From contig VGVZ01000005.1 of the NCBI GenBank assembly GCA_016873805.1, positions 62,001 to 126,000 of the forward strand: DNA of 64,000 nt, read 5' to 3'. The notes beneath the pieces were generated by a model that was not told where the DNA came from, did no database searches, and worked only from the letters and a program-made list of their open reading frames with translations. The translations under genes and the position numbers were made by a program. Source of the stretch: Ignavibacteria bacterium (GTDB taxonomy: Bacteria; Bacteroidota; Ignavibacteria; UBA10030). Position 1 is the stretch's first letter. Each line of letters starts with the position of its first letter. Below, in pieces: positions 20,406-60,682 of the stretch.

Positions 20406-22178
20406 GTGAAAACATTCAACAAACGGACGCATACATGTGGTGAGCTTCGAACGTCTCATGTCGGACAGACTGTGGTTCTCACGGGTTGGGTCGATCGGCG
20501 ACGCGACCTCGGCGGGGTCATCTTTATCGACCTCCGGGATCGATACGGCAAGACGCAGATCGTGATTTCCGGAAAAGAGGATTCGAGGGCGTACGAAGAA
20601 GCGAAAACACTGCGTTCGGAATACGTCGTTTCCGTCACCGGTGAGGTAGAACGACGCCCGGAGGGAACAGAAAACCCCGAGATGGCGACTGGTGCGATCG
20701 ACGTGAGGATTCGCGAATTATCGGTCCTCAACAAGGCCGATACGCCCCCGTTTACGCTCGAGGATGATGCGGACGTGTCAGAAGATCTTCGCCTTCGGTT
20801 CCGCTATCTGGATCTCCGAAGACCGCGCATGCAGAAGAACATTCTCCTTCGTCATCGTGCCTATCAGATCGTTCGGGCATACTACGACAGGCTGGGGTTT
20901 GTGGAGGTCGAGACCCCCGTCTTGATGAAGAGCACGCCGGAGGGAGCAAGGGACTACCTCGTTCCAAGCAGGATCCACAAGGGGAAATTCTATGCGCTGC
21001 CGCAGTCGCCGCAGACATACAAGCAGATCTTGATGGTCGCCGGATTCGACAGGTACTTCCAGATTGTGAAGTGTTTTCGCGATGAAGACCTTCGGGCCGA
21101 TCGCCAGCCCGAATTCACGCAGATCGATGTGGAGATGTCATTCGTCGATGAACAAGATGTATACGAAATGACGGAAGGGCTGATGGCTGAACTCTTCCGC
21201 GGCATCCTCGATCTGGAGATTGAGCGTCCGTTGCGCCGTCTGACGTACAAAGAAGCGATGGAGAAGTACGGGAGCGACAAGCCGGACGATCGCTTTGGAA
21301 TGACGCTCACCATGCTCTCTGACGTCGTCGCGAAAAGCGGATTTCGAGTCTTCAGCGAGACCGTTGCCGGAGGAAGCATCGTTTCAGGATTCGCCGTTCC
21401 GGGCCTCGCAAACTCCACGCGGAATCAGCTCGATGGTCTCACGGCTCTGGCGAAATCAATGGGAGCCGGGGGATTGATCTATATGAAAGTCACTGAGGGG
21501 GGAATCGAAAGTTCGGTTGACAAATTCGTTTCACCAGGAGAGAAGCAGGCGATCGTCGAAAGAATTGGAGCGCAGAGGGGTGATCTCTGCTTGATTGTAA
21601 CCGGCCCCTGGCAAAAGACACTTTCAGTCTTGGGGGCTCTCAGACTCGAAATGGCAGACCGCTTGAATCTCATTCCTCACGATGTCTGGAATCTACTCTG
21701 GGTGACGGACTTTCCGTTGCTGGAATACGATTCGGAAGAAAAGCGATTTGTTGCCGTTCATCATCCCTTCACATCACCGAAATTCGAAGATGTGGGAATG
21801 CTTGATTCCGATCCTGGCAAAACCCGCGCACGTGCCTATGATCTTGTGCTGAATGGAAATGAGATCGCGGGTGGGAGTATCAGGATTCACGATTCGAAAC
21901 TGCAAAGCAAGATGTTTACATTGCTCGGGATTGGTGAAGAGGATGCACGAAGGAAGTTCGGATTCATGCTCGATGCGTTTCGATACGGAGCCCCGCCGCA
22001 TGGCGGAATCGCGTTTGGCTTTGACCGGATCGTCATGCTCCTCGCAGGAGAAGAGTCGATCCGCGAGGTCATTGCCTTTCCGAAAACATCGAGCGGCTTG
22101 TCACCCATGGATGATTCACCCTCTGAAGTCGACCAGAAACAGTTGGACGAGCTGGGGATCGGTCGCCTCAAAAAATAG
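20406..22178 (+). CDS. aspS: Aspartyl-tRNA synthetase, GTG start
   Basis: GWVDRRRDLGGVIFIDLRDRYGKTQIV, FRDEDLRADRQPEFTQIDVEMSF. Confidence 0.95.
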   Translation: MKTFNKRTHTCGELRTSHVGQTVVLTGWVDRRRDLGGVIFIDLRDRYGKTQIVISGKEDSRAYEEAKTLRSEYVVSVTGEVERRPEGTENPEMATGAIDVRIRELSVLNKADTPPFTLEDDADVSEDLRLRFRYLDLRRPRMQKNILLRHRAYQIVRAYYDRLGFVEVETPVLMKSTPEGARDYLVPSRIHKGKFYALPQSPQTYKQILMVAGFDRYFQIVKCFRDEDLRADRQPEFTQIDVEMSFVDEQDVYEMTEGLMAELFRGILDLEIERPLRRLTYKEAMEKYGSDKPDDRFGMTLTMLSDVVAKSGFRVFSETVAGGSIVSGFAVPGLANSTRNQLDGLTALAKSMGAGGLIYMKVTEGGIESSVDKFVSPGEKQAIVERIGAQRGDLCLIVTGPWQKTLSVLGALRLEMADRLNLIPHDVWNLLWVTDFPLLEYDSEEKRFVAVHHPFTSPKFEDVGMLDSDPGKTRARAYDLVLNGNEIAGGSIRIHDSKLQSKMFTLLGIGEEDARRKFGFMLDAFRYGAPPHGGIAFGFDRIVMLLAGEESIREVIAFPKTSSGLSPMDDSPSEVDQKQLDELGIGRLKK

Positions 22179-22213: not shown

Positions 22214-23260
22214 ATGGTCGGAATCGTGGGATATGGCGCGTACCTTCCTCGCTACCGGATCAAAGCCGAGACGATTGCTCGGCAGTGGGGGGCAGATGCA
22301 GAGGCAATCAAGCGGGGGCTTCAACTCACCGAAAAAACCGTTCCCGGACAGGACGAGGACACGATCACAATTTCCGTGGAGGCGGCCCGCGGCGCGATCC
22401 AGAGGGCGCAGATCGATCCGCAGGAAATTGGCGCAGTCTACATCGGATCCGAATCCCATCCATACGCAGTCAAACCGAGCGGAACGGTTCTGATTGACGC
22501 ACTGGGAATTGGACCGCATGTTCATGTCGCAACAAATGAGTTCGCATGCAAGGCCGGTTCGGAGGCGATGTATGTGGCCTACAGCCATGTGAAGTCCGGA
22601 GAAATGAAATACGCACTCGGAATCGGGGCTGATACTTCCCAGGGGGCCCCCGGCGACGCTCTTGAGTATTCTGCTTCGGCGGGAGGAGCGGCGTTCATCA
22701 TGGGGACCGAACGCGTCGCGGCAGAGATCCTTTTCACTCATTCGTACACTTCAGACACCCCTGATTTCTGGCGGCGCGAGGGTGAATTCTATCCACGACA
22801 CGCAGGACGATTCACCGGTGATCCGGCGTACTTCAAACACATTGTGGGAGCGGGGCAGGCTCTGCTGGAGAAATCGAAACTTGCGCCGAAGGATTTCACA
22901 CACGCCGTCTTTCACATGCCGAACGGAAAATTTCCGCAGGAAGCCGGTCGTCGACTGGGATTCACCAAGCAGCAACTGGAATTTGGATGGATTGTGCCAT
23001 TGATGGGCAACACCTACTCGGGTTCCTCCCCGACAGGACTTGCCGCGATCCTCGACGTGGCCAATCCGGGCGATCTCATCTTCATGGTGTCGTTTGGTTC
23101 GGGAGCGGGGAGTGATGGATTCGTCTATCGGGTGACCGAAGAGATCAAGGCGATAAAGGATCGCGCGCCGAAGGTGCGATCAATGCTGGACAACGGCAAG
23201 ATTTATCTGGACTACGGCCAGTACACGAAGCATAGACACAAAATCAAACTCAACGAATAA
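22214..23260 (+). CDS. Hydroxymethylglutaryl-CoA synthase, archaeal-type
   Basis: [15 protein letters not shown], catalytic-Cys motif [31 protein letters not shown]. Confidence 0.85.
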
Positions 23261-23271
23261 GGAGGCCCCCA

Positions 23272-24423
23272 ATGAGAGACGTCTATGTAATCGGGGCTGG
23301 GATGACGCCGTTCGGAGAATTGTGGAACAAGTCGATTCGCGAGATCTTCGTCGATGCGGCCATGTTGGCAATTGAAGATGCCGGTGTCGACCACATCGAT
23401 TCACTGTACGTTGGATCGATGTCTCCGGGATTGTTTGTCGGTCAGGAACATTTGGGACCGGTCGTCGCAGATTTCCTCGGGGTGACTCCAGTGCCGGCGA
23501 CGCGCGTCGAATCGGCGTGCGCATCGGGCGGCGTATCGTTTCGGCAGGCTTTTCTCGAGGTGGCTTCGGGCGTGAGTGAGATTGTTCTTGCAGGAGGCGT
23601 GGAGAAAATGACCGATGGCGCCGACGTCACGGAGGCGCTTGCGACCGCAGCCGATCAGGAGTATGAAGTCTACCATGGGGTCACATTTCCAGGGTTGTAC
23701 GCCATGATTGCGCGGGCCCACATGCACCAATTCGGGACGACACGCCAACAACTGGCGGAGGTCGCGGTGAAAAATCACCGAAATGGAATGAAGAATCCAA
23801 ACGCGCAGTTTCGATCGGAAATCACAAATGAGCAAGTTGTAAAGTCCACGATGGTGGCGGATCCATTGCGGCTTCTCGATTGTTCACCCGTCAGCGATGG
23901 CGGCGCGGGAGTCATCCTGGCATCTGCCGACGTGGCAAAGAAAATGAAGAGCCGCGCTGTCAAGGTGATCGCCTCGACTCAGGCCTCGGACACCATTGCC
24001 CTCCATGACCGAACCGACCTTACCACACTCGGTGCGGTAGTCCGTGCCGCCGAAAAAGCGTACGCTATGGCAGGGAAGAAGCCGAGCGACGTCAATCTCG
24101 CAGAAGTCCATGATTGTTTCACGATCGCAGAAATCGTGATCTCGGAGGATTTGGGATTCTTCGAGAAGGGGAAAGGGGGAGAGGCCGTTGAGAAAGGGTT
24201 GACCGCTCGAGAATGCGGAAAGATCCCCATCAATTCCAGCGGGGGGCTGAAATCGAAAGGACATCCTGTGGGCGCAACCGGCATTGCTCAGATTATCGAA
24301 CTCTACGAGCAACTCACAGGACGCGGCGGCGAGCGACAGGTGAAGAAGGCAAATATCGGTCTTGCCCAGAACATGGGTGGGAGCGGCGCCAGCTGTGTCA
24401 TCCATATCCTGGAGGCCATATGA
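23272..24423 (+). CDS. Thiolase / acetyl-CoA C-acetyltransferase, archaeal-type
   Basis: [28 protein letters not shown]. Confidence 0.88.
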
Positions 24424-24809
24424 TCTCACCGCGATACGCAAGGGAAATACCACAGCGATATCAACTCGTGGCGGCGCGATGTACGTCGTGTGGAACAATC
24501 GGATTCCCTCCACGACGCGTCTGCAAACACTGCCGCGGCAGACAATTTGAGCCGACAAAGCTCGATAGTGATGGAAAAATCCTCACCTTCACGATTATCC
24601 GCGTTGGGGCTGATCGGTTTTCGAAGCAGACCCCGTACGCCGTTGCCGTCATCGAGCTCAACGACGGCACTCGACTCACGGCGCAAGTAACCGATTGCGA
24701 GCTGGAAAGTCTTGAAATTGGGCAAAAAGTCCGGCTTGTTTTTCGCAAGATTCAGGAGGATGGAAAAGCAGGAATCCTCTGTTATGGCTACAAGGCAATC
24801 TGTGTCTGA
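24420..24809 (+). CDS. Zn-ribbon/OB-fold (DUF35-type) acyl-CoA-associated protein
   Basis: [18 protein letters not shown] zinc ribbon and OB-like region; ATGA overlap with the thiolase. Confidence 0.82.
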
Positions 24810-24851
24810 TTCCAACCCTTGTCCATAGACGTTCTCGATCAAGGAGCAGTT

Positions 24852-26213
24852 GTGAAGGAGAGTGTTCGCATTGCATCCGGTCAGGGTTTTTGGGGTGATC
24901 TTCCCAATGCGCCGATCGATCAGGTCACGAAGGGACCGATCGACTACATCATGATGGATTTTCTGGCGGAAGTAACGATGTCCATCATGCAGAAGCAGAA
25001 GAAGCGAAATCCTGAGCTTGGGTACGCCAGAGACCTCATAACAATCATTGATCAGATTCTGCCCGTCTGTGTGGAAAGGAAAATCAAGATTATCACAAAC
25101 GGAGGCGGAGCGAATCCGCGCGCTTGCCGCGATGCCGTGTTCGCTTGTGCCCGCACGCATGGCATCAAAGGGTTGAAGATTGGAACCGTGTATGGCGACG
25201 ACATCCTGCCTCGACTCGACGGCTTGCGCAAGAAGGGGATGTTGTTCACCAATCTGGAAACAGGTCGGACAATCGAGCATATCGGCCACAAGATTCTAAG
25301 CGCGAATGTCTATTTTGGCGCGATGCCGATCGTGAAGGCCCTTCGCCAAGGAGCACAGATCGTCATCACGGGCCGCACGACCGACACCGGATTGACCCTT
25401 GCTCCGATGATTCACGAATTCGGATGGAAACAAAACGAGTGGGACAAACTGGCCGCTGGCACCGTTGCCGGCCATATACTGGAATGCGGCGGCCAGGCGT
25501 CCGGCGGGAATTTTTCCGGTGATTGGCGTTCGGTTCCCGATCTGGCCCATATCGGCTTCCCGATCGCCGAGGCGCATGCGAACGGTGACGTCGTTATCAC
25601 GAAACACGAAGCCACCGGTGGAATGGTAACGATGCAAACCGTGAAGGAGCAGTTGCTGTACGAAATTGGCGACCCACGTACGTACATTACTCCGGACTGC
25701 ATCGCCGATTTCACATCGATCGAGTTGTCGGATGACGGGAAAGATCGGGTCAAGATCTCCGGCGTCAAAGGTCGGGCAGCAACGGATACGTACAAAGTCT
25801 CAATGTCGTACCTGGACGGATATACGGCGTTCGGCACCCTCACGTATGCTTGGCCCGATGCCCTCGAGAAGGCAAAAGCGGCGGACGAAATCCTGAGAAC
25901 CCGACTCAGCGATATGGGGCTGGCCTACGAAGAGATACGTTCCGAATTCCTGGGATACAATTCATGTCACGGTCCTCTCGCGCAAAAAATCGATGATGTC
26001 AATGAAGTCGTCCTTCGCGTCGGAGTGCGCAGCCATGATCACAGGGCGGTGGAAGCCTTTGGGAGGGAGATCGCTCCCCTCATCCTCACAGGTCCACCGA
26101 CCGTGACGGGATTTTCCGGAGGCCGGCCAAAACCGAGCGAGGTGATAGCGTACTGGCCGGCCCTGATTGCCAAACAGTGCGTCACGCCACGTGTGGTGGT
26201 GAAAGAGGTGTAA
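24852..26213 (+). CDS. AtuA-like (DUF1446) acyclic terpene utilization family protein, GTG start
   Basis: SVRIASGQGFWGD, KIITNGGGANPRACRDAV, VITGRTTDTGLTLAPM, ECGGQASGGNFSGDW. Confidence 0.82.
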   Translation: MKESVRIASGQGFWGDLPNAPIDQVTKGPIDYIMMDFLAEVTMSIMQKQKKRNPELGYARDLITIIDQILPVCVERKIKIITNGGGANPRACRDAVFACARTHGIKGLKIGTVYGDDILPRLDGLRKKGMLFTNLETGRTIEHIGHKILSANVYFGAMPIVKALRQGAQIVITGRTTDTGLTLAPMIHEFGWKQNEWDKLAAGTVAGHILECGGQASGGNFSGDWRSVPDLAHIGFPIAEAHANGDVVITKHEATGGMVTMQTVKEQLLYEIGDPRTYITPDCIADFTSIELSDDGKDRVKISGVKGRAATDTYKVSMSYLDGYTAFGTLTYAWPDALEKAKAADEILRTRLSDMGLAYEEIRSEFLGYNSCHGPLAQKIDDVNEVVLRVGVRSHDHRAVEAFGREIAPLILTGPPTVTGFSGGRPKPSEVIAYWPALIAKQCVTPRVVVKEV

Positions 26214-26543
26214 ATGAAAGTGAAGCTTCTCGATATTTGTCATGCTCGTTCGGGAGACAAAGGGGACAGTGCGAATATTGGTCTCGTGGCGCGAAAGCCG
26301 GAATTCTATCCAATCCTCGAGCAATATGTTACGGCGGAGGCCGTGAAGAAACATTTTGACGGAATAGCCCTCGGGTCGGTCGAGCGATACGAGCTTCCCA
26401 ATCTCTGGGCACTCAACTTTATCCTGAACAACGCCCTCGGTGGGGGCGGAACCCGCTCGTTGAAGAATGATGCGCAGGGGAAGACTCTATCCACCGCCCT
26501 GCTCAGGATGGTAATCGATGTCAATGAATCAGTGGATCTGTAG
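26214..26543 (+). CDS. AtuA C-terminal-like small protein
   Basis: LLDICHARSGDKGDSANIGLVAR, ALGGGGTRSLKNDAQGK; starts immediately after the TAA of the preceding gene. Confidence 0.8.
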   Translation: MKVKLLDICHARSGDKGDSANIGLVARKPEFYPILEQYVTAEAVKKHFDGIALGSVERYELPNLWALNFILNNALGGGGTRSLKNDAQGKTLSTALLRMVIDVNESVDL

Positions 26544-26559
26544 ATTGGGAGGATGAACG

Positions 26560-27664
26560 ATGTTCGAGGAGTTGAAAGAACGGCTGGAGGAGGAAAGGAA
26601 TCGATTGCAGGCCCTGCGGGGGTTTCTTTGACCTCGATGTCAAAGAAAAAGAATACCAGGAACTCCAGCAAAAGACCGCTGCCCCGGAATTCTGGGATGA
26701 CAATGTTTCGGCGCAGAAGATCATCCAGGAGATGAACTCCAGAAAAGAATGGATCGACCAATGGAAAGCACTTTCCGCGCGAGCCGAGGAGATTTCCGTC
26801 CTCATTGAGCTCGGAGAGGAAGCCAACGATACCGGGACGGCGGACGAAGTGGAGCGAGATCTCGATTTGTTGCAGCAGGGGATCACTGATCTGGAATTCC
26901 TGAATATGCTGAGCGGCGAGGATGATGAGAAGAATGCTCTGCTGACGATTCATTCAGGCGCCGGAGGAACTGAATCGCAGGACTGGGCGGAAATGCTGCT
27001 GCGGATGTACACCCGATGGTGCGAGCGGAACAAGTTCAAAGTCAATCTCGTCGACTTGCTGGAAGGGGAAGGAGCGGGCATCAAAAGCGCGACGCTCGAG
27101 GTTGTCGGCAAATATGCGTACGGGTATCTCAAAGCTGAAAATGGTGTCCACCGCTTAGTGCGGATCTCTCCGTTCGATGCGAATGCCCGCCGTCATACCT
27201 CGTTTGCGTCAGTATTCGTCTACCCTGAAATTGAGGATGATATTGAAATTGAGATTAATCCCGCGGATCTGAAGATCGATACCTACCGTTCCGGCGGGAA
27301 AGGGGGGCAGAATGTGAACAAGGTGGAGACAGCCGTTCGGATCACTCACGTGCCATCCGGCGTTGTCGTTGCCTGTCAGCAGGAACGATCGCAGCACCAG
27401 AATCGCGAGCGAGCGATGAAGATGCTGAAGTCGCGATTGTATCAACTCCGTCGGGACGAAGAAGAGGCACGGATGAACGCGCTGGAAAGCACGAAGAAGA
27501 AGATTGAGTGGGGGAGCCAGATCCGCTCCTATACCTTCCAGCCGTATACGCTGGTCAAGGACCATCGCACGGGGTACGAGACCGGTAACGTCCAGGCCGT
27601 GATGGATGGTCACATCGATGAATTCATCAGAAGCTATCTGCTTGAGCAAAGTAGCACGAAATAG
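26560..27664 (+). CDS. prfB: Peptide chain release factor 2 with programmed +1 frameshift at CTT-TGA-C (26626-26632)
   Basis: 0-frame ATG 26560 ... CGG GGG TTT CTT TGA; +1 frame continues [27 protein letters not shown] and GGQ motifs present. Confidence 0.95.
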
Positions 27665-55788: not shown

Positions 55789-56259
55789 ATGAAACCACAC
55801 GCGCTTGATGAGATTGACGTGAAATTGTTGGAGGTTCTGCAGGAGGATGGAAGAACGAAACGGAACGAATTGGCCGAAATCGTCGGGCTCTCCCTTCCGG
55901 CGGTGAGCGAGCGCCTGCGAAAACTCGAAGAGTCGGGATACATCCTCGGATACGCCGCCAGGTTAGATCACAAAATGCTGAGCCGGGATGTGACGGCGTT
56001 CATCCTTGTGACCGTAGATTCATCGAAGCATTTCTCGTCGTTTGTCGAGAACGTCCATCATCACGATGAAATCCTCGAATGCCACGCAATCACCGGCGAT
56101 GGAACGCATCTGCTGAAAGTGCGTACCTACAATACGGCCTCACTCGAAAAAATGCTTGCAAGGATACAGTCGTGGAACGGTGTCGCAAAAACAACCACGA
56201 GCGTGGTGCTCTCGAGCACCAAAGAGACATTGCGATTGAAACTCAATAAACCGAAATAA
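55789..56259 (+). CDS. Lrp/AsnC-family transcriptional regulator
   Basis: [47 protein letters not shown]. Confidence 0.92.
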
Positions 56260-57851: not shown

Positions 57852-58634
57852 ATGGACTATACGCGCATCAAATACGAGGTTGATCAACGCGTCTGCACGA
57901 TCTCGCTGAGCCGCCCCGAGAAGCGAAACGCTTTCGACGACAAGATGGTGGCCGAGCTCACCACAGCCTTTTACCAGGCCCAGAAGGATTCGAAATCAAA
58001 GGTTATACTTCTCAAGGGGGAAGGCGATGCCTTTTGCGCGGGGGCCGATCTGGCGTACCTGCAACGCATTTCGAAGTTCGACTTCAATCAGAACCAGGAA
58101 GACTCATCGAGCTTGATGAAGCTCTTGCTGCAGATCTACTCAAACCGGAAGCCGGTCATTGCCGTCGTTCGTGGGCCTGCGATCGCCGGCGGGTGTGGTC
58201 TGGCGACCGTGTGCGATATCATCGTGGCCTCGAAGGAGACCGCGATGTTCGGTTACACGGAAGTACGGATTGGCTTCATCCCTGCCTTGGTGATGGTGTT
58301 TCTCGTTCGAAGAATTGGGGAGGGACGTGCGCGTGAGTTGGCGTTGCGCGGGAATCTCCTCACGGCCGATGAAGCATACACCATCGGCCTGGTCAATCAT
58401 GTTGTACCCGAAACAGAACTCGACAAGCGCGCACAGGAACTCGCCCAGGAGCTGATCAAGAAATCGAGTGCCTCATCGATGGGCTTGATCAAGGAACTCA
58501 TCGCGAGAATCCATGGAATGTCGACAAGCGACGCGCTTGACTATGCGGCGAATCTGAACGCTCTGACGCGCATGACCGACGACTGCAAAAAGGGGATCGA
58601 GGCCTTCCTGAAGAAGGAGTCCATCAAATGGTAA
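57852..58634 (+). CDS. Enoyl-CoA hydratase/isomerase family protein (methylglutaconyl-CoA hydratase-like)
   Basis: ISLSRPEKRNAFDDKMV, GDAFCAGADLAYLQRI, GPAIAGGCGLATVCDII, FGYTEVRIGFIPA. Confidence 0.85.
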   Translation: MDYTRIKYEVDQRVCTISLSRPEKRNAFDDKMVAELTTAFYQAQKDSKSKVILLKGEGDAFCAGADLAYLQRISKFDFNQNQEDSSSLMKLLLQIYSNRKPVIAVVRGPAIAGGCGLATVCDIIVASKETAMFGYTEVRIGFIPALVMVFLVRRIGEGRARELALRGNLLTADEAYTIGLVNHVVPETELDKRAQELAQELIKKSSASSMGLIKELIARIHGMSTSDALDYAANLNALTRMTDDCKKGIEAFLKKESIKW

Positions 58635-59207: not shown

Positions 59208-59236
59208 CAGCCCCAGCGGTGGGGCTGTTCGGTTTT
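59208..59236 (+). terminator. Possible terminator after apt
   Basis: CAGCCCCA-gcgg-TGGGGCTG followed by ttcggtttt. Confidence 0.4.
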
Positions 59237-59302
59237 CAGCGCAGGCGCAGAGGTCTTGCTCCACAAGACACAAGGCGATCCCGCCTCTTTATCGGAGAGA
59301 GC

Positions 59303-60682
59303 ATGAAATTCAAGACAATCATTGAGCCGTTCAAAATAAAATCGATCGAACCGATACGGTCTACCACGCCGGAGGAGCGCGCACAATACCTGCGCGAGAG
59401 TCATTACAACGTCTTCTTGTTGAGAGCGGAAGACGTCTTGATCGATCTCCTCACCGACAGCGGAACGTCCGCCATGAGTTCTCACCAGTGGGCCGGAATC
59501 ATGGATGGCGACGAAGCGTATGCGGGCTCGAAAAGCTTCTTTCGTTTTCAGCGGGTTGTCCAGGAATTGACAGGGATGAAGCATGTCATCCCGACTCATC
59601 AGGGCCGGGCGGCGGAAAAAATTCTCTTCACGATCACCGGCGGGAGCGGCAAGTTGGTTCCCAACAACACACACTTTGACACGACACGAGCGAACGTGGA
59701 GTACAGCGGTGCTCAGGCCATCGACTTCCCGACGGCCGAAGGGCGTCAACCCGATGTGATCGCCGACTTCAAAGGAAACATCGACCTTGCGCAATTGGAA
59801 CGATTTATCGAGGAACGGGGAAAAGAAAACATCCCCCTCTGCATGATTACGGTTACAAACAATTCAGGGGGCGGCCAGCCTGTCTCCATGAGAAACATTC
59901 GTTCGGCAAAGGAGCTCTTATCAAAGTACGGCATTCCTCTCTTCCTTGATGCGTGCCGGTTTGCGGAAAATGCATTCTTCATCAAGAAGCGTGAACAGGG
60001 ATACCACGACAAGACGGTACGAGAGATCGCCCGGGAAATGTTCTCGTATGCGGATGGATGCACGATGAGCGCGAAGAAGGATGGGCTTGTGAATATGGGA
60101 GGATTTCTCGCGTTGAACGACGATCACCTCGCATCCCAGGCACGGAACATCCTCATTGTGACGGAAGGCTTTCCCACATACGGAGGTTTGTCGGGACGTG
60201 ACCTCGAAGCGATCGCCCAAGGACTGGAGGAGGTGCTCGACGAAAATTACTTGACCTATCGCATCCGATCGGTCGAGTACTTGGGGGAGAAACTTGTCGC
60301 AGCCGGCGTTCCGATTGTGCGCCCTCCCGGCGGGCATGCGGTCTATCTCGATGCCCGGGCGTTTGCGCCTCACATACCGCCTCACGAGTATCCGGGTCAG
60401 ACGATTGTGTGTGAACTTTATCGACAGGGAGGAATCCGCGCCGTTGAGATTGGGAGTGTCATGTTTGGGAAGTACGATTCAACCGGAAACCTCGTTTCTC
60501 CGGCGATGGAACTGGTACGGCTGGCGATTCCGCGTCGCGTCTATACCCAAAGTCATATCGATTATGTTTCTGAAGTCGTTCAAGCGGTCTTTGAGGGACG
60601 GAAGCGCCTTAAGGGCTACAAGATTATTGAGGAAGCGCCGATCCTTCGTCATTTCACTGCGAAGTTTGAGCCGATCATATAG
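59303..60682 (+). CDS. tnaA: Tryptophanase (tryptophanase/tyrosine phenol-lyase family)
   Basis: IDLLTDSGTSAMSSHQWAGIMDGDEAYAGS, IPTHQGRAAEKI, CTMSAKKDGLVNMGGFL, GIRAVEIGSVMFG. Confidence 0.88.
   Translation: MKFKTIIEPFKIKSIEPIRSTTPEERAQYLRESHYNVFLLRAEDVLIDLLTDSGTSAMSSHQWAGIMDGDEAYAGSKSFFRFQRVVQELTGMKHVIPTHQGRAAEKILFTITGGSGKLVPNNTHFDTTRANVEYSGAQAIDFPTAEGRQPDVIADFKGNIDLAQLERFIEERGKENIPLCMITVTNNSGGGQPVSMRNIRSAKELLSKYGIPLFLDACRFAENAFFIKKREQGYHDKTVREIAREMFSYADGCTMSAKKDGLVNMGGFLALNDDHLASQARNILIVTEGFPTYGGLSGRDLEAIAQGLEEVLDENYLTYRIRSVEYLGEKLVAAGVPIVRPPGGHAVYLDARAFAPHIPPHEYPGQTIVCELYRQGGIRAVEIGSVMFGKYDSTGNLVSPAMELVRLAIPRRVYTQSHIDYVSEVVQAVFEGRKRLKGYKIIEEAPILRHFTAKFEPII

What the first reader, a model, noticed from the sequence alone, without database searches (positions are those of the whole stretch)
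22214..26543. Archaeal-style thiolase/HMG-CoA synthase/DUF35 trio coupled to a split AtuA pair, in a genome with MEP-pathway genes
Sequence: five tightly packed genes encode HMG-CoA synthase, thiolase, a Zn-ribbon OB-fold (DUF35-like) protein, AtuA-like large and AtuA C-terminal-like small proteins, with ATGA and TAA-ATG junctions that suggest one transcript. The same window encodes the MEP-pathway proteins IspH (C-terminus) and IspF, but no HMG-CoA reductase or mevalonate kinase. Established knowledge: archaea use a thiolase-DUF35-HMGS complex to make HMG-CoA for the mevalonate pathway, and AtuA belongs to acyclic terpene utilization loci with no settled biochemical role. Inference: the HMG-CoA made here is unlikely to feed isoprenoids. 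It may serve a branched-chain acyl-CoA route (a reverse-leucine/isovaleryl-type pathway, as in myxobacteria) or a catabolic module using AtuA. The methylglutaconyl-CoA hydratase-like gene at 57852-58634 could be the next step.
Basis: partly seen in the sequence, partly recalled or inferred. Interest (0 to 1): 0.75.

Follow-up and report, generated by a model that had tools for sequence, protein, structure and literature searches.

The report
Leucine-breakdown HMG-CoA gene cluster
A five-gene cluster in a Bacteroidota (probably Ignavibacteria) genome pairs an archaeal-type HMG-CoA-making trio with a two-subunit AtuA enzyme that appears to replace the usual HMG-CoA lyase of leucine breakdown in about half of the leucine-degrading Bacteroidota sampled, a specific and testable prediction.

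Summary
The five genes are real and intact: archaeal-type HMG-CoA synthase, SCP2-like thiolase, DUF35, AtuA and AtuA_C. The genome is 99% complete. It uses the MEP pathway and shows no HMG-CoA reductase, mevalonate kinases, HMG-CoA lyase or AibAB-type CoA transferase, so mevalonate and the myxobacterial Aib route are not supported. The surroundings point to leucine catabolism. The AtuA pair is ancestral at this site (aspS/miaA–AtuA–AtuA_C–prfB). The trio is sporadic (9 of 248 phylum genomes) but lies beside AtuA wherever contigs allow the test. Among 161 genomes with methylcrotonyl-CoA carboxylase, 88 have AtuA only, 66 HMG-CoA lyase only, 7 both and none neither. A same-class relative carries a leucine operon with AtuA in the lyase slot. 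AtuA-only genomes mostly lack acetoacetate-activating enzymes, which fits cleavage of HMG-CoA to acetoacetyl-CoA + acetate; a published AtuA-like pair (ThnQS) does the analogous cleavage. I propose that AtuA/AtuA_C is the HMG-CoA-cleaving enzyme of leucine degradation here, with the co-encoded thiolase–DUF35 taking acetoacetyl-CoA to acetyl-CoA. The role and direction of the HMG-CoA synthase are unresolved. No biochemistry was done; P-values ignore phylogeny.

The parts
22214..23260 (+). archaeal-type HMG-CoA synthase, 348 aa; conserved Glu (SESHPY), Cys (EFACKAG) and His (VFHMPNGKF)
   Evidence: 56% identical to M. thermolithotrophicus HMGS 6esq_I
23272..24423 (+). acetoacetyl-CoA thiolase of the archaeal/SCP2 type, 383 aa
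   Evidence: best solved relative 6esq_A, E 4e-118
24420..24809 (+). DUF35 Zn-ribbon/OB-fold protein, 129 aa, four Zn-ribbon cysteines intact; ATGA overlap with thiolase
24852..26213 (+). AtuA large subunit, 453 aa, GTG start preceded by AAGGAG; proposed catalytic subunit of an HMG-CoA:acetate lyase
   Evidence: phylogenetic profile
26214..26543 (+). AtuA C-terminal (ferredoxin-like) small subunit, 109 aa; TAAATG junction; fused to AtuA in relative G188
20406..22178 (+). aspS, conserved upstream flank of the AtuA locus in order-level relatives
26560..27664 (+). prfB (RF2) with CTTTGA +1 frameshift site at 26626-26631; conserved downstream flank, 16 bp after AtuA_C
57852..58634 (+). enoyl-CoA hydratase, candidate 3-methylglutaconyl-CoA hydratase (43-44% to hydratases encoded next to AtuA_C in G001/G011)

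Best explanation
The cluster is the HMG-CoA node of leucine/isovalerate catabolism. AtuA + AtuA_C form a two-subunit lyase that replaces classical HMG-CoA lyase. It cleaves HMG-CoA at its free-carboxylate arm to acetoacetyl-CoA + acetate. The co-encoded thiolase-DUF35 pair then thiolyses acetoacetyl-CoA to two acetyl-CoA, so no acetoacetate-activating CoA transferase is needed. The archaeal-type HMGS belongs to the same thiolase/DUF35 complex and gives a second link between HMG-CoA, acetoacetyl-CoA and acetyl-CoA; its net direction in vivo is undetermined. Shown by sequence: gene identities, synteny, intact HMGS active site, missing rival enzymes, and the AtuA / HMG-CoA lyase / MCC profile. 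Inferred: the AtuA reaction, its regiochemistry, and complex formation.
For: (1) Of 161 phylum genomes with MCC-type carboxyltransferase: 88 AtuA-only, 66 HMG-CoA-lyase-only, 7 both, 0 neither; 68 of 87 MCC-negative genomes have neither. (2) Six genomes in otherwise AtuA-bearing families that lack AtuA and HMG-CoA lyase (G078; G120, G240; G156, G216; G006) all lack MCC too. (3) Same-class G188 has MCC-CT / ECH / biotin carboxylase / BCCP / fused AtuA+AtuA_C / acyl-CoA dehydrogenase in one operon without HMG-CoA lyase; G001 and G011 have carboxyltransferase-NUDIX-AtuA-AtuA_C, with ECH shown in G001; a Rhodococcus plasmid has AtuA near carboxylase, ACAD and ECH genes. (4) The window's genome has MCC beta beside an acyl-CoA dehydrogenase but no HMG-CoA lyase, no PF01144 and no acetoacetyl-CoA synthetase. 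(5) SCOT-type transferase in 2 of 88 AtuA-only against 49 of 66 lyase-only genomes; SCOT or acetoacetyl-CoA synthetase 21/88 against 58/66. (6) AtuA-like pair ThnQ/ThnS cleaves a tertiary 3-hydroxyacyl-CoA to 3-oxoazeloyl-CoA (PMC12016498, citing unpublished data); [quoted passage not shown] (7) The trio lies beside AtuA in all genomes where contigs allow the test.
Against: No activity was measured. HMGS + an HMG-CoA-cleaving enzyme in one operon is net futile if both run forward. 92 or more of the 101 AtuA genomes lack the trio, so the trio is not needed for AtuA function. 19 AtuA-only genomes do have acetoacetyl-CoA synthetase. PMC4097962 assigns the isohexenyl step to LiuE, not AtuA. The profile P-values ignore phylogeny, and the MCC and lyase thresholds were set at gaps seen in the data. 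The AtuA tree groups trio-linked AtuAs (94/99) but does not reject the species grouping (p 0.06; 0.10 with AtuA_C added).
Confidence: 0.6

Rival explanations
1. The trio and the AtuA pair are functionally unrelated neighbours: AtuA is a leucine-pathway enzyme at a fixed locus and the trio merely inserted next to it and serves another pathway.
For: AtuA's locus exists without the trio in most relatives; trio without AtuA in G160; unrelated genes lie between trio and AtuA in G172 and G148.
Against: In every genome with both that can be tested the trio is beside AtuA, on either side (upstream in G000/G055/G172/G176, downstream in G116), and linkage persists despite inserted genes. Trio-linked AtuAs group together in the AtuA tree, though weakly.
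Confidence: 0.2
2. Biosynthetic reverse-leucine route: the trio makes HMG-CoA, which is dehydrated, decarboxylated and reduced to isovaleryl-CoA for iso-branched fatty acids, as in myxobacteria.
For: Intact HMGS without mevalonate enzymes; MCC, ACAD and an enoyl-CoA hydratase exist and could in principle run backwards.
Against: No AibAB-type CoA transferase PF01144 in any trio genome; an HMG-CoA-cleaving AtuA in the same operon would work against it; HMGS is archaeal-type, not MvaS-type.
Confidence: 0.12
3. Ketogenic/overflow cycle: thiolase + HMGS + AtuA lyase turn acetyl-CoA into acetate or acetoacetate and free CoA.
For: All three activities of classical ketogenesis would be encoded together if AtuA is an HMG-CoA lyase.
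Against: No gain in ATP or redox is evident; no acetoacetate-handling enzyme of the SCOT or acetoacetyl-CoA synthetase families in the genome.
Confidence: 0.1
4. Upper half of an archaeal-type mevalonate pathway for isoprenoids.
For: Trio is the archaeal HMG-CoA-forming module.
Against: No HMG-CoA reductase; only two GHMP kinases, of IspE/ThrB size; MEP genes ispH, ispF, ispG present.
Confidence: 0.02

Closest known systems
Archaeal acetoacetyl-CoA thiolase / DUF35 / HMG-CoA synthase complex (PDB 6ESQ, Methanothermococcus)
   Same: All three proteins, gene adjacency, HMGS active-site residues and Zn-ribbon DUF35; 56% identity for HMGS
   Different: Sits with an AtuA pair in a MEP-pathway bacterium without HMG-CoA reductase; complex formation not tested
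Leucine/isovalerate utilisation (liu) pathway with HMG-CoA lyase LiuE
   Same: MCC, acyl-CoA dehydrogenase and enoyl-CoA hydratase are present in the genome or in relatives' operons
   Different: No LiuE homologue; AtuA/AtuA_C occupies its slot
Acyclic terpene utilisation AtuA (Pseudomonas, Thauera)
   Same: Same protein families PF07287 + PF23544, proposed 3-hydroxy-3-alkylglutaryl-CoA:acetate lyase
   Different: Split into two genes and linked to an HMGS trio; no atu cluster around it
ThnQ/ThnS AtuA-like lyase of anaerobic naphthalene degradation
   Same: Two-gene AtuA-like enzyme cleaving at a tertiary hydroxylated carbon to a 3-oxoacyl-CoA with a free carboxylate (PMC12016498)
   Different: Substrate is a cyclic C9 acyl-CoA; sequences not compared here
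Myxobacterial alternative isovaleryl-CoA pathway (MvaS, LiuC, AibAB, AibC)
   Same: Starts from HMG-CoA synthase in an organism without a use for it in isoprenoids (own knowledge)
   Different: AibAB absent; HMGS of another type

Membership tests
archaeal thiolase/DUF35/HMGS complex | archaeal-type HMGS equivalog above curated cut-off | tested here: met
   TIGR00748 493 bits vs 353; PRK04262.1 515 vs 244
archaeal thiolase/DUF35/HMGS complex | HMGS catalytic Glu/Cys/His present | tested here: met
   conserved in alignment with 6esq_I and all relatives
archaeal thiolase/DUF35/HMGS complex | adjacent SCP2-type thiolase and Zn-ribbon/OB DUF35 | tested here: met
archaeal thiolase/DUF35/HMGS complex | stable heteromeric complex with shared CoA site | not testable with these tools
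   needs co-purification
mevalonate pathway | HMG-CoA reductase and mevalonate kinases in the genome | tested here: not met
classical HMG-CoA lyase (LiuE/HMGL) | HMGL-family protein in the genome | tested here: not met
   no match at E<=1e-3 in G000
AtuA family (PF07287 + PF23544) | both domains above gathering score | tested here: met
   519 and 109 bits
AtuA family acting as acetate-releasing lyase | cleavage of a 3-hydroxy-3-alkylglutaryl-CoA | not testable with these tools
   supported only by profile, operon context and literature
liu (leucine) pathway | methylcrotonyl-CoA carboxylase beta in own genome | tested here: met
   G000:C11 carboxyltransferase matches MCC beta 3u9r at 1e-168, a PCC beta (1vrg) at 3e-89
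liu (leucine) pathway | 3-methylglutaconyl-CoA hydratase | tested here: inconclusive
   candidate at 57852-58634, 43-44% to AtuA-linked hydratases
myxobacterial Aib isovaleryl-CoA pathway | AibAB (CoA transferase family I) | tested here: not met
   PF01144 absent in G000 and all trio genomes
myxobacterial Aib isovaleryl-CoA pathway | AibC reductase | not tested
   MDR family too broad for a useful search

The most novel reading that the evidence does not exclude
AtuA/AtuA_C is an unrecognised, non-homologous HMG-CoA:acetate lyase serving leucine degradation in about half of leucine-degrading Bacteroidota (and more generally an acetate-releasing lyase for tertiary 3-hydroxy acids). In this clade the archaeal thiolase/HMGS/DUF35 complex has been recruited beside it to run in the catabolic direction (HMG-CoA + 2 CoA to 3 acetyl-CoA), sparing the ATP of acetate activation.
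Probability: 0.2. Interest if true: 0.8.

Novelty: new variant of a known kind. Interest (0 to 1): 0.62.

Why it matters
It gives a large family of uncertain role (AtuA, formerly DUF1446) a concrete, testable reaction and fills a gap in leucine degradation: 88 of 161 MCC-bearing genomes sampled have no HMG-CoA lyase, and every one of them has AtuA. It also warns that an archaeal-type HMG-CoA synthase in a bacterium need not mean mevalonate. The same logic could bear on the unknown fate of citramalate in enterobacteria, where a DUF1446 gene lies next to methylaspartate ammonia-lyase (PMC4682846).

Tried and rejected
Mevalonate pathway: rejected by whole-genome searches. Aib route: PF01144 absent. 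A CitE-like lyase as alternative HMG-CoA lyase: the only clear PF03328 protein of the genome is an HpaI/GarL-type aldolase next to ispG, and several AtuA-only relatives have none above the cut-off. Conserved extra genes of the cluster: genes between trio and AtuA in relatives are unrelated insertions (DUF5677, DUF1697, TMEM175), as are genes between aspS and the trio (ORF6N, nucleotidyltransferase). Structure of AtuA: no solved relative by sequence; AlphaFold on five sequences (read-through AtuA+AtuA_C) gave mean pLDDT 52 and was not interpreted. AtuA in viral contigs: none. Co-transfer of trio and AtuA: suggestive in the AtuA tree, not upheld once AtuA_C is added, while the HMGS tree groups the four members G000, G055, G172 and mag1 together, so vertical descent with losses is as likely. 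Promoter/terminator scan: no more sites than in shuffles. Papers on AtuA function in leucine degradation: none found in the library.
Full report
OBSERVATION. The five genes are at the stated place, intact and on one strand. HMGS is of the archaeal type (TIGR00748 493 bits, cut-off 353; bacterial model 105 bits, cut-off 360), 56% identical to the Methanothermococcus enzyme of complex 6ESQ, with the conserved Glu, Cys and His motifs. The thiolase's best solved relative is the thiolase of the same complex. DUF35 has its Zn-ribbon and OB domains. AtuA and AtuA_C match PF07287 and PF23544 strongly. The homologue alignment shows that AtuA starts at GTG 24852 after AAGGAG, not at the TTG of the mechanical ORF. 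prfB follows 16 bp after AtuA_C.

GENOME CONTEXT. The window's assembly (3.2 Mb, 99.13% complete) has no HMG-CoA reductase, no HMG-CoA lyase, no family-I CoA transferase, hence no AibAB or SCOT, no acetoacetyl-CoA synthetase and only two GHMP kinases, of sizes fitting IspE and ThrB. It has the MEP genes ispH, ispF and ispG. It does have a methylcrotonyl-CoA carboxylase beta subunit (match to MCC beta 3u9r at 1e-168 against a PCC beta, 1vrg, at 3e-89), encoded next to an acyl-CoA dehydrogenase. Named database relatives are Ignavibacteriae, Chlorobi and Bacteroidota MAGs; the class name Ignavibacteria is therefore an inference.

SYNTENY. In 248 genomes of the phylum archaeal-type HMGS passes its cut-off in nine, all in this class. 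AtuA is in 101, always single-copy. In trio-less relatives AtuA–AtuA_C lies between aspS (same order) or miaA (class) and prfB. The trio sits between aspS/miaA and AtuA in G000, G055, G172 and G176, about 11 kb upstream of AtuA in G148, and between AtuA_C and prfB in G116. Two named MAGs (L031, L034) agree. In G047 and G082 the contigs end in between and cannot decide. G160 has a trio but no AtuA, and has HMG-CoA lyase.

WHAT AtuA DOES. The strongest evidence is a phylogenetic profile. Counting a genome as MCC+ if its best match to a Rhodococcus AtuA-cluster carboxyltransferase is E<=1e-90, and as lyase+ if its NF004283 match is E<=1e-45 (both thresholds lie in wide gaps of the values), the 161 MCC+ genomes split into 88 AtuA-only, 66 lyase-only, 7 both, 0 neither; 68 of 87 MCC-negative genomes have neither. 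Fisher's P is 1e-37 but ignores phylogeny. At family level, by my tally of the table, 17 families are AtuA-type, 12 lyase-type and 4 mixed. Within four AtuA-bearing families the six genomes lacking both AtuA and lyase also lack MCC, which are co-losses largely independent of the deep phylogeny.

OPERONS. G188, in the same class, encodes MCC carboxyltransferase, enoyl-CoA hydratase, biotin carboxylase, biotin carrier, a fused AtuA–AtuA_C and an acyl-CoA dehydrogenase in a row: a leucine-utilisation operon with AtuA where LiuE would be. G001 and G011 have carboxyltransferase–NUDIX–AtuA–AtuA_C; the following hydratase-sized gene is a confirmed ECH in G001. Carboxyltransferase and AtuA positions are adjacent in G235, G014 and G211. 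A Rhodococcus plasmid has AtuA with carboxylase, ACAD and ECH genes. Other plasmid homologues sit beside citrate, tricarboxylate or TRAP transporter genes, suggesting a family acting on branched hydroxy-carboxylates.

REGIOCHEMISTRY. If HMG-CoA were split to acetoacetate + acetyl-CoA, acetoacetate would need a CoA transferase or synthetase. SCOT-type transferases are in 49/66 lyase-only but 2/88 AtuA-only genomes. SCOT or acetoacetyl-CoA synthetase is in 58/66 against 21/88. The eight AtuA+trio genomes have neither. This fits cleavage at the carboxylate arm to acetoacetyl-CoA + acetate, the direction reported for the AtuA-like pair ThnQ/ThnS, which makes 3-oxoazeloyl-CoA from a tertiary 3-hydroxyacyl-CoA (PMC12016498, citing unpublished assays), and the name given to AtuA in PMC4847356. 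PMC4097962 instead assigns the terpene step to LiuE, so AtuA's role there is unsettled.

MECHANISM. Most likely leucine is degraded through isovaleryl-CoA, methylcrotonyl-CoA and methylglutaconyl-CoA (hydratase candidate at 57852-58634, 43-44% identical to AtuA-linked hydratases) to HMG-CoA. AtuA/AtuA_C then gives acetoacetyl-CoA + acetate, and thiolase–DUF35 gives acetyl-CoA. Why HMGS is kept is the open part. It is catalytically intact by sequence. Running forward together with AtuA it would only hydrolyse acetyl-CoA. Running backward, coupled to thiolysis, it would turn HMG-CoA into three acetyl-CoA without ATP (from general thermodynamic knowledge: HMGS forward is exergonic and acetoacetyl-CoA thiolysis is exergonic, so the sum may be near equilibrium; not computed here). 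It may also serve another product. I do not claim a direction.

EVOLUTION. The PrfB tree groups the family of G000 (100/99) and rejects a trio clade (p 0.0003). The AtuA tree groups eight trio-linked AtuAs plus one of unknown status (94/99), but the species grouping is not rejected (p 0.06; 0.10 with AtuA_C added). HMGS of G000, G055, G172 and mag1 form a clade (96/98). Vertical descent with many losses and transfer remain both possible.

VERDICT. The trio itself is a new context for a known complex. The broader point, AtuA as non-homologous HMG-CoA-cleaving enzyme in leucine catabolism, is new to me and absent from the paper library searched, but it is untested biochemically.

Noticed in passing
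26560-26634: prfB starts at ATG 26560 and carries the classical RF2 autoregulatory frameshift site (CTT TGA C at 26626-26632); the mechanical ORF at 26732 is truncated.
   Followed up: partly
L042:3902-4282 (G160): The DUF35 of the trio genome without AtuA has lost the Zn-ribbon cysteines, and its trio is split by a 298-aa ORF with no Pfam or NCBIfam match.
   Followed up: no
L102, L104 (G018, G046): In two distant phylum members AtuA is followed by a ~600-aa ABC transporter gene and no AtuA_C homologue was found nearby by tblastn.
   Followed up: no
L122:8358-8846 and L123:8433-8915: A NUDIX hydrolase gene sits between the MCC-like carboxyltransferase and AtuA in both G001 and G011.
   Followed up: no
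L112, L114, L116, L117 (plasmid homologues): AtuA genes lie beside citrate, tricarboxylate or TRAP transporter genes, hinting at citrate/citramalate-like substrates for part of the family.
   Followed up: no
literature, PMC4682846: In enterobacterial glutamate (methylaspartate) clusters a DUF1446 gene follows mal and the fate of citramalate is unknown; an AtuA-type acetate-releasing lyase would fit.
   Followed up: no
55789-56259: Lrp-type (leucine-responsive family) regulator gene directly upstream of glnA and the hydratase at 57852.
   Followed up: no
59219-60682: Tryptophanase / tyrosine phenol-lyase family gene, another amino-acid catabolism gene in the window.
   Followed up: no
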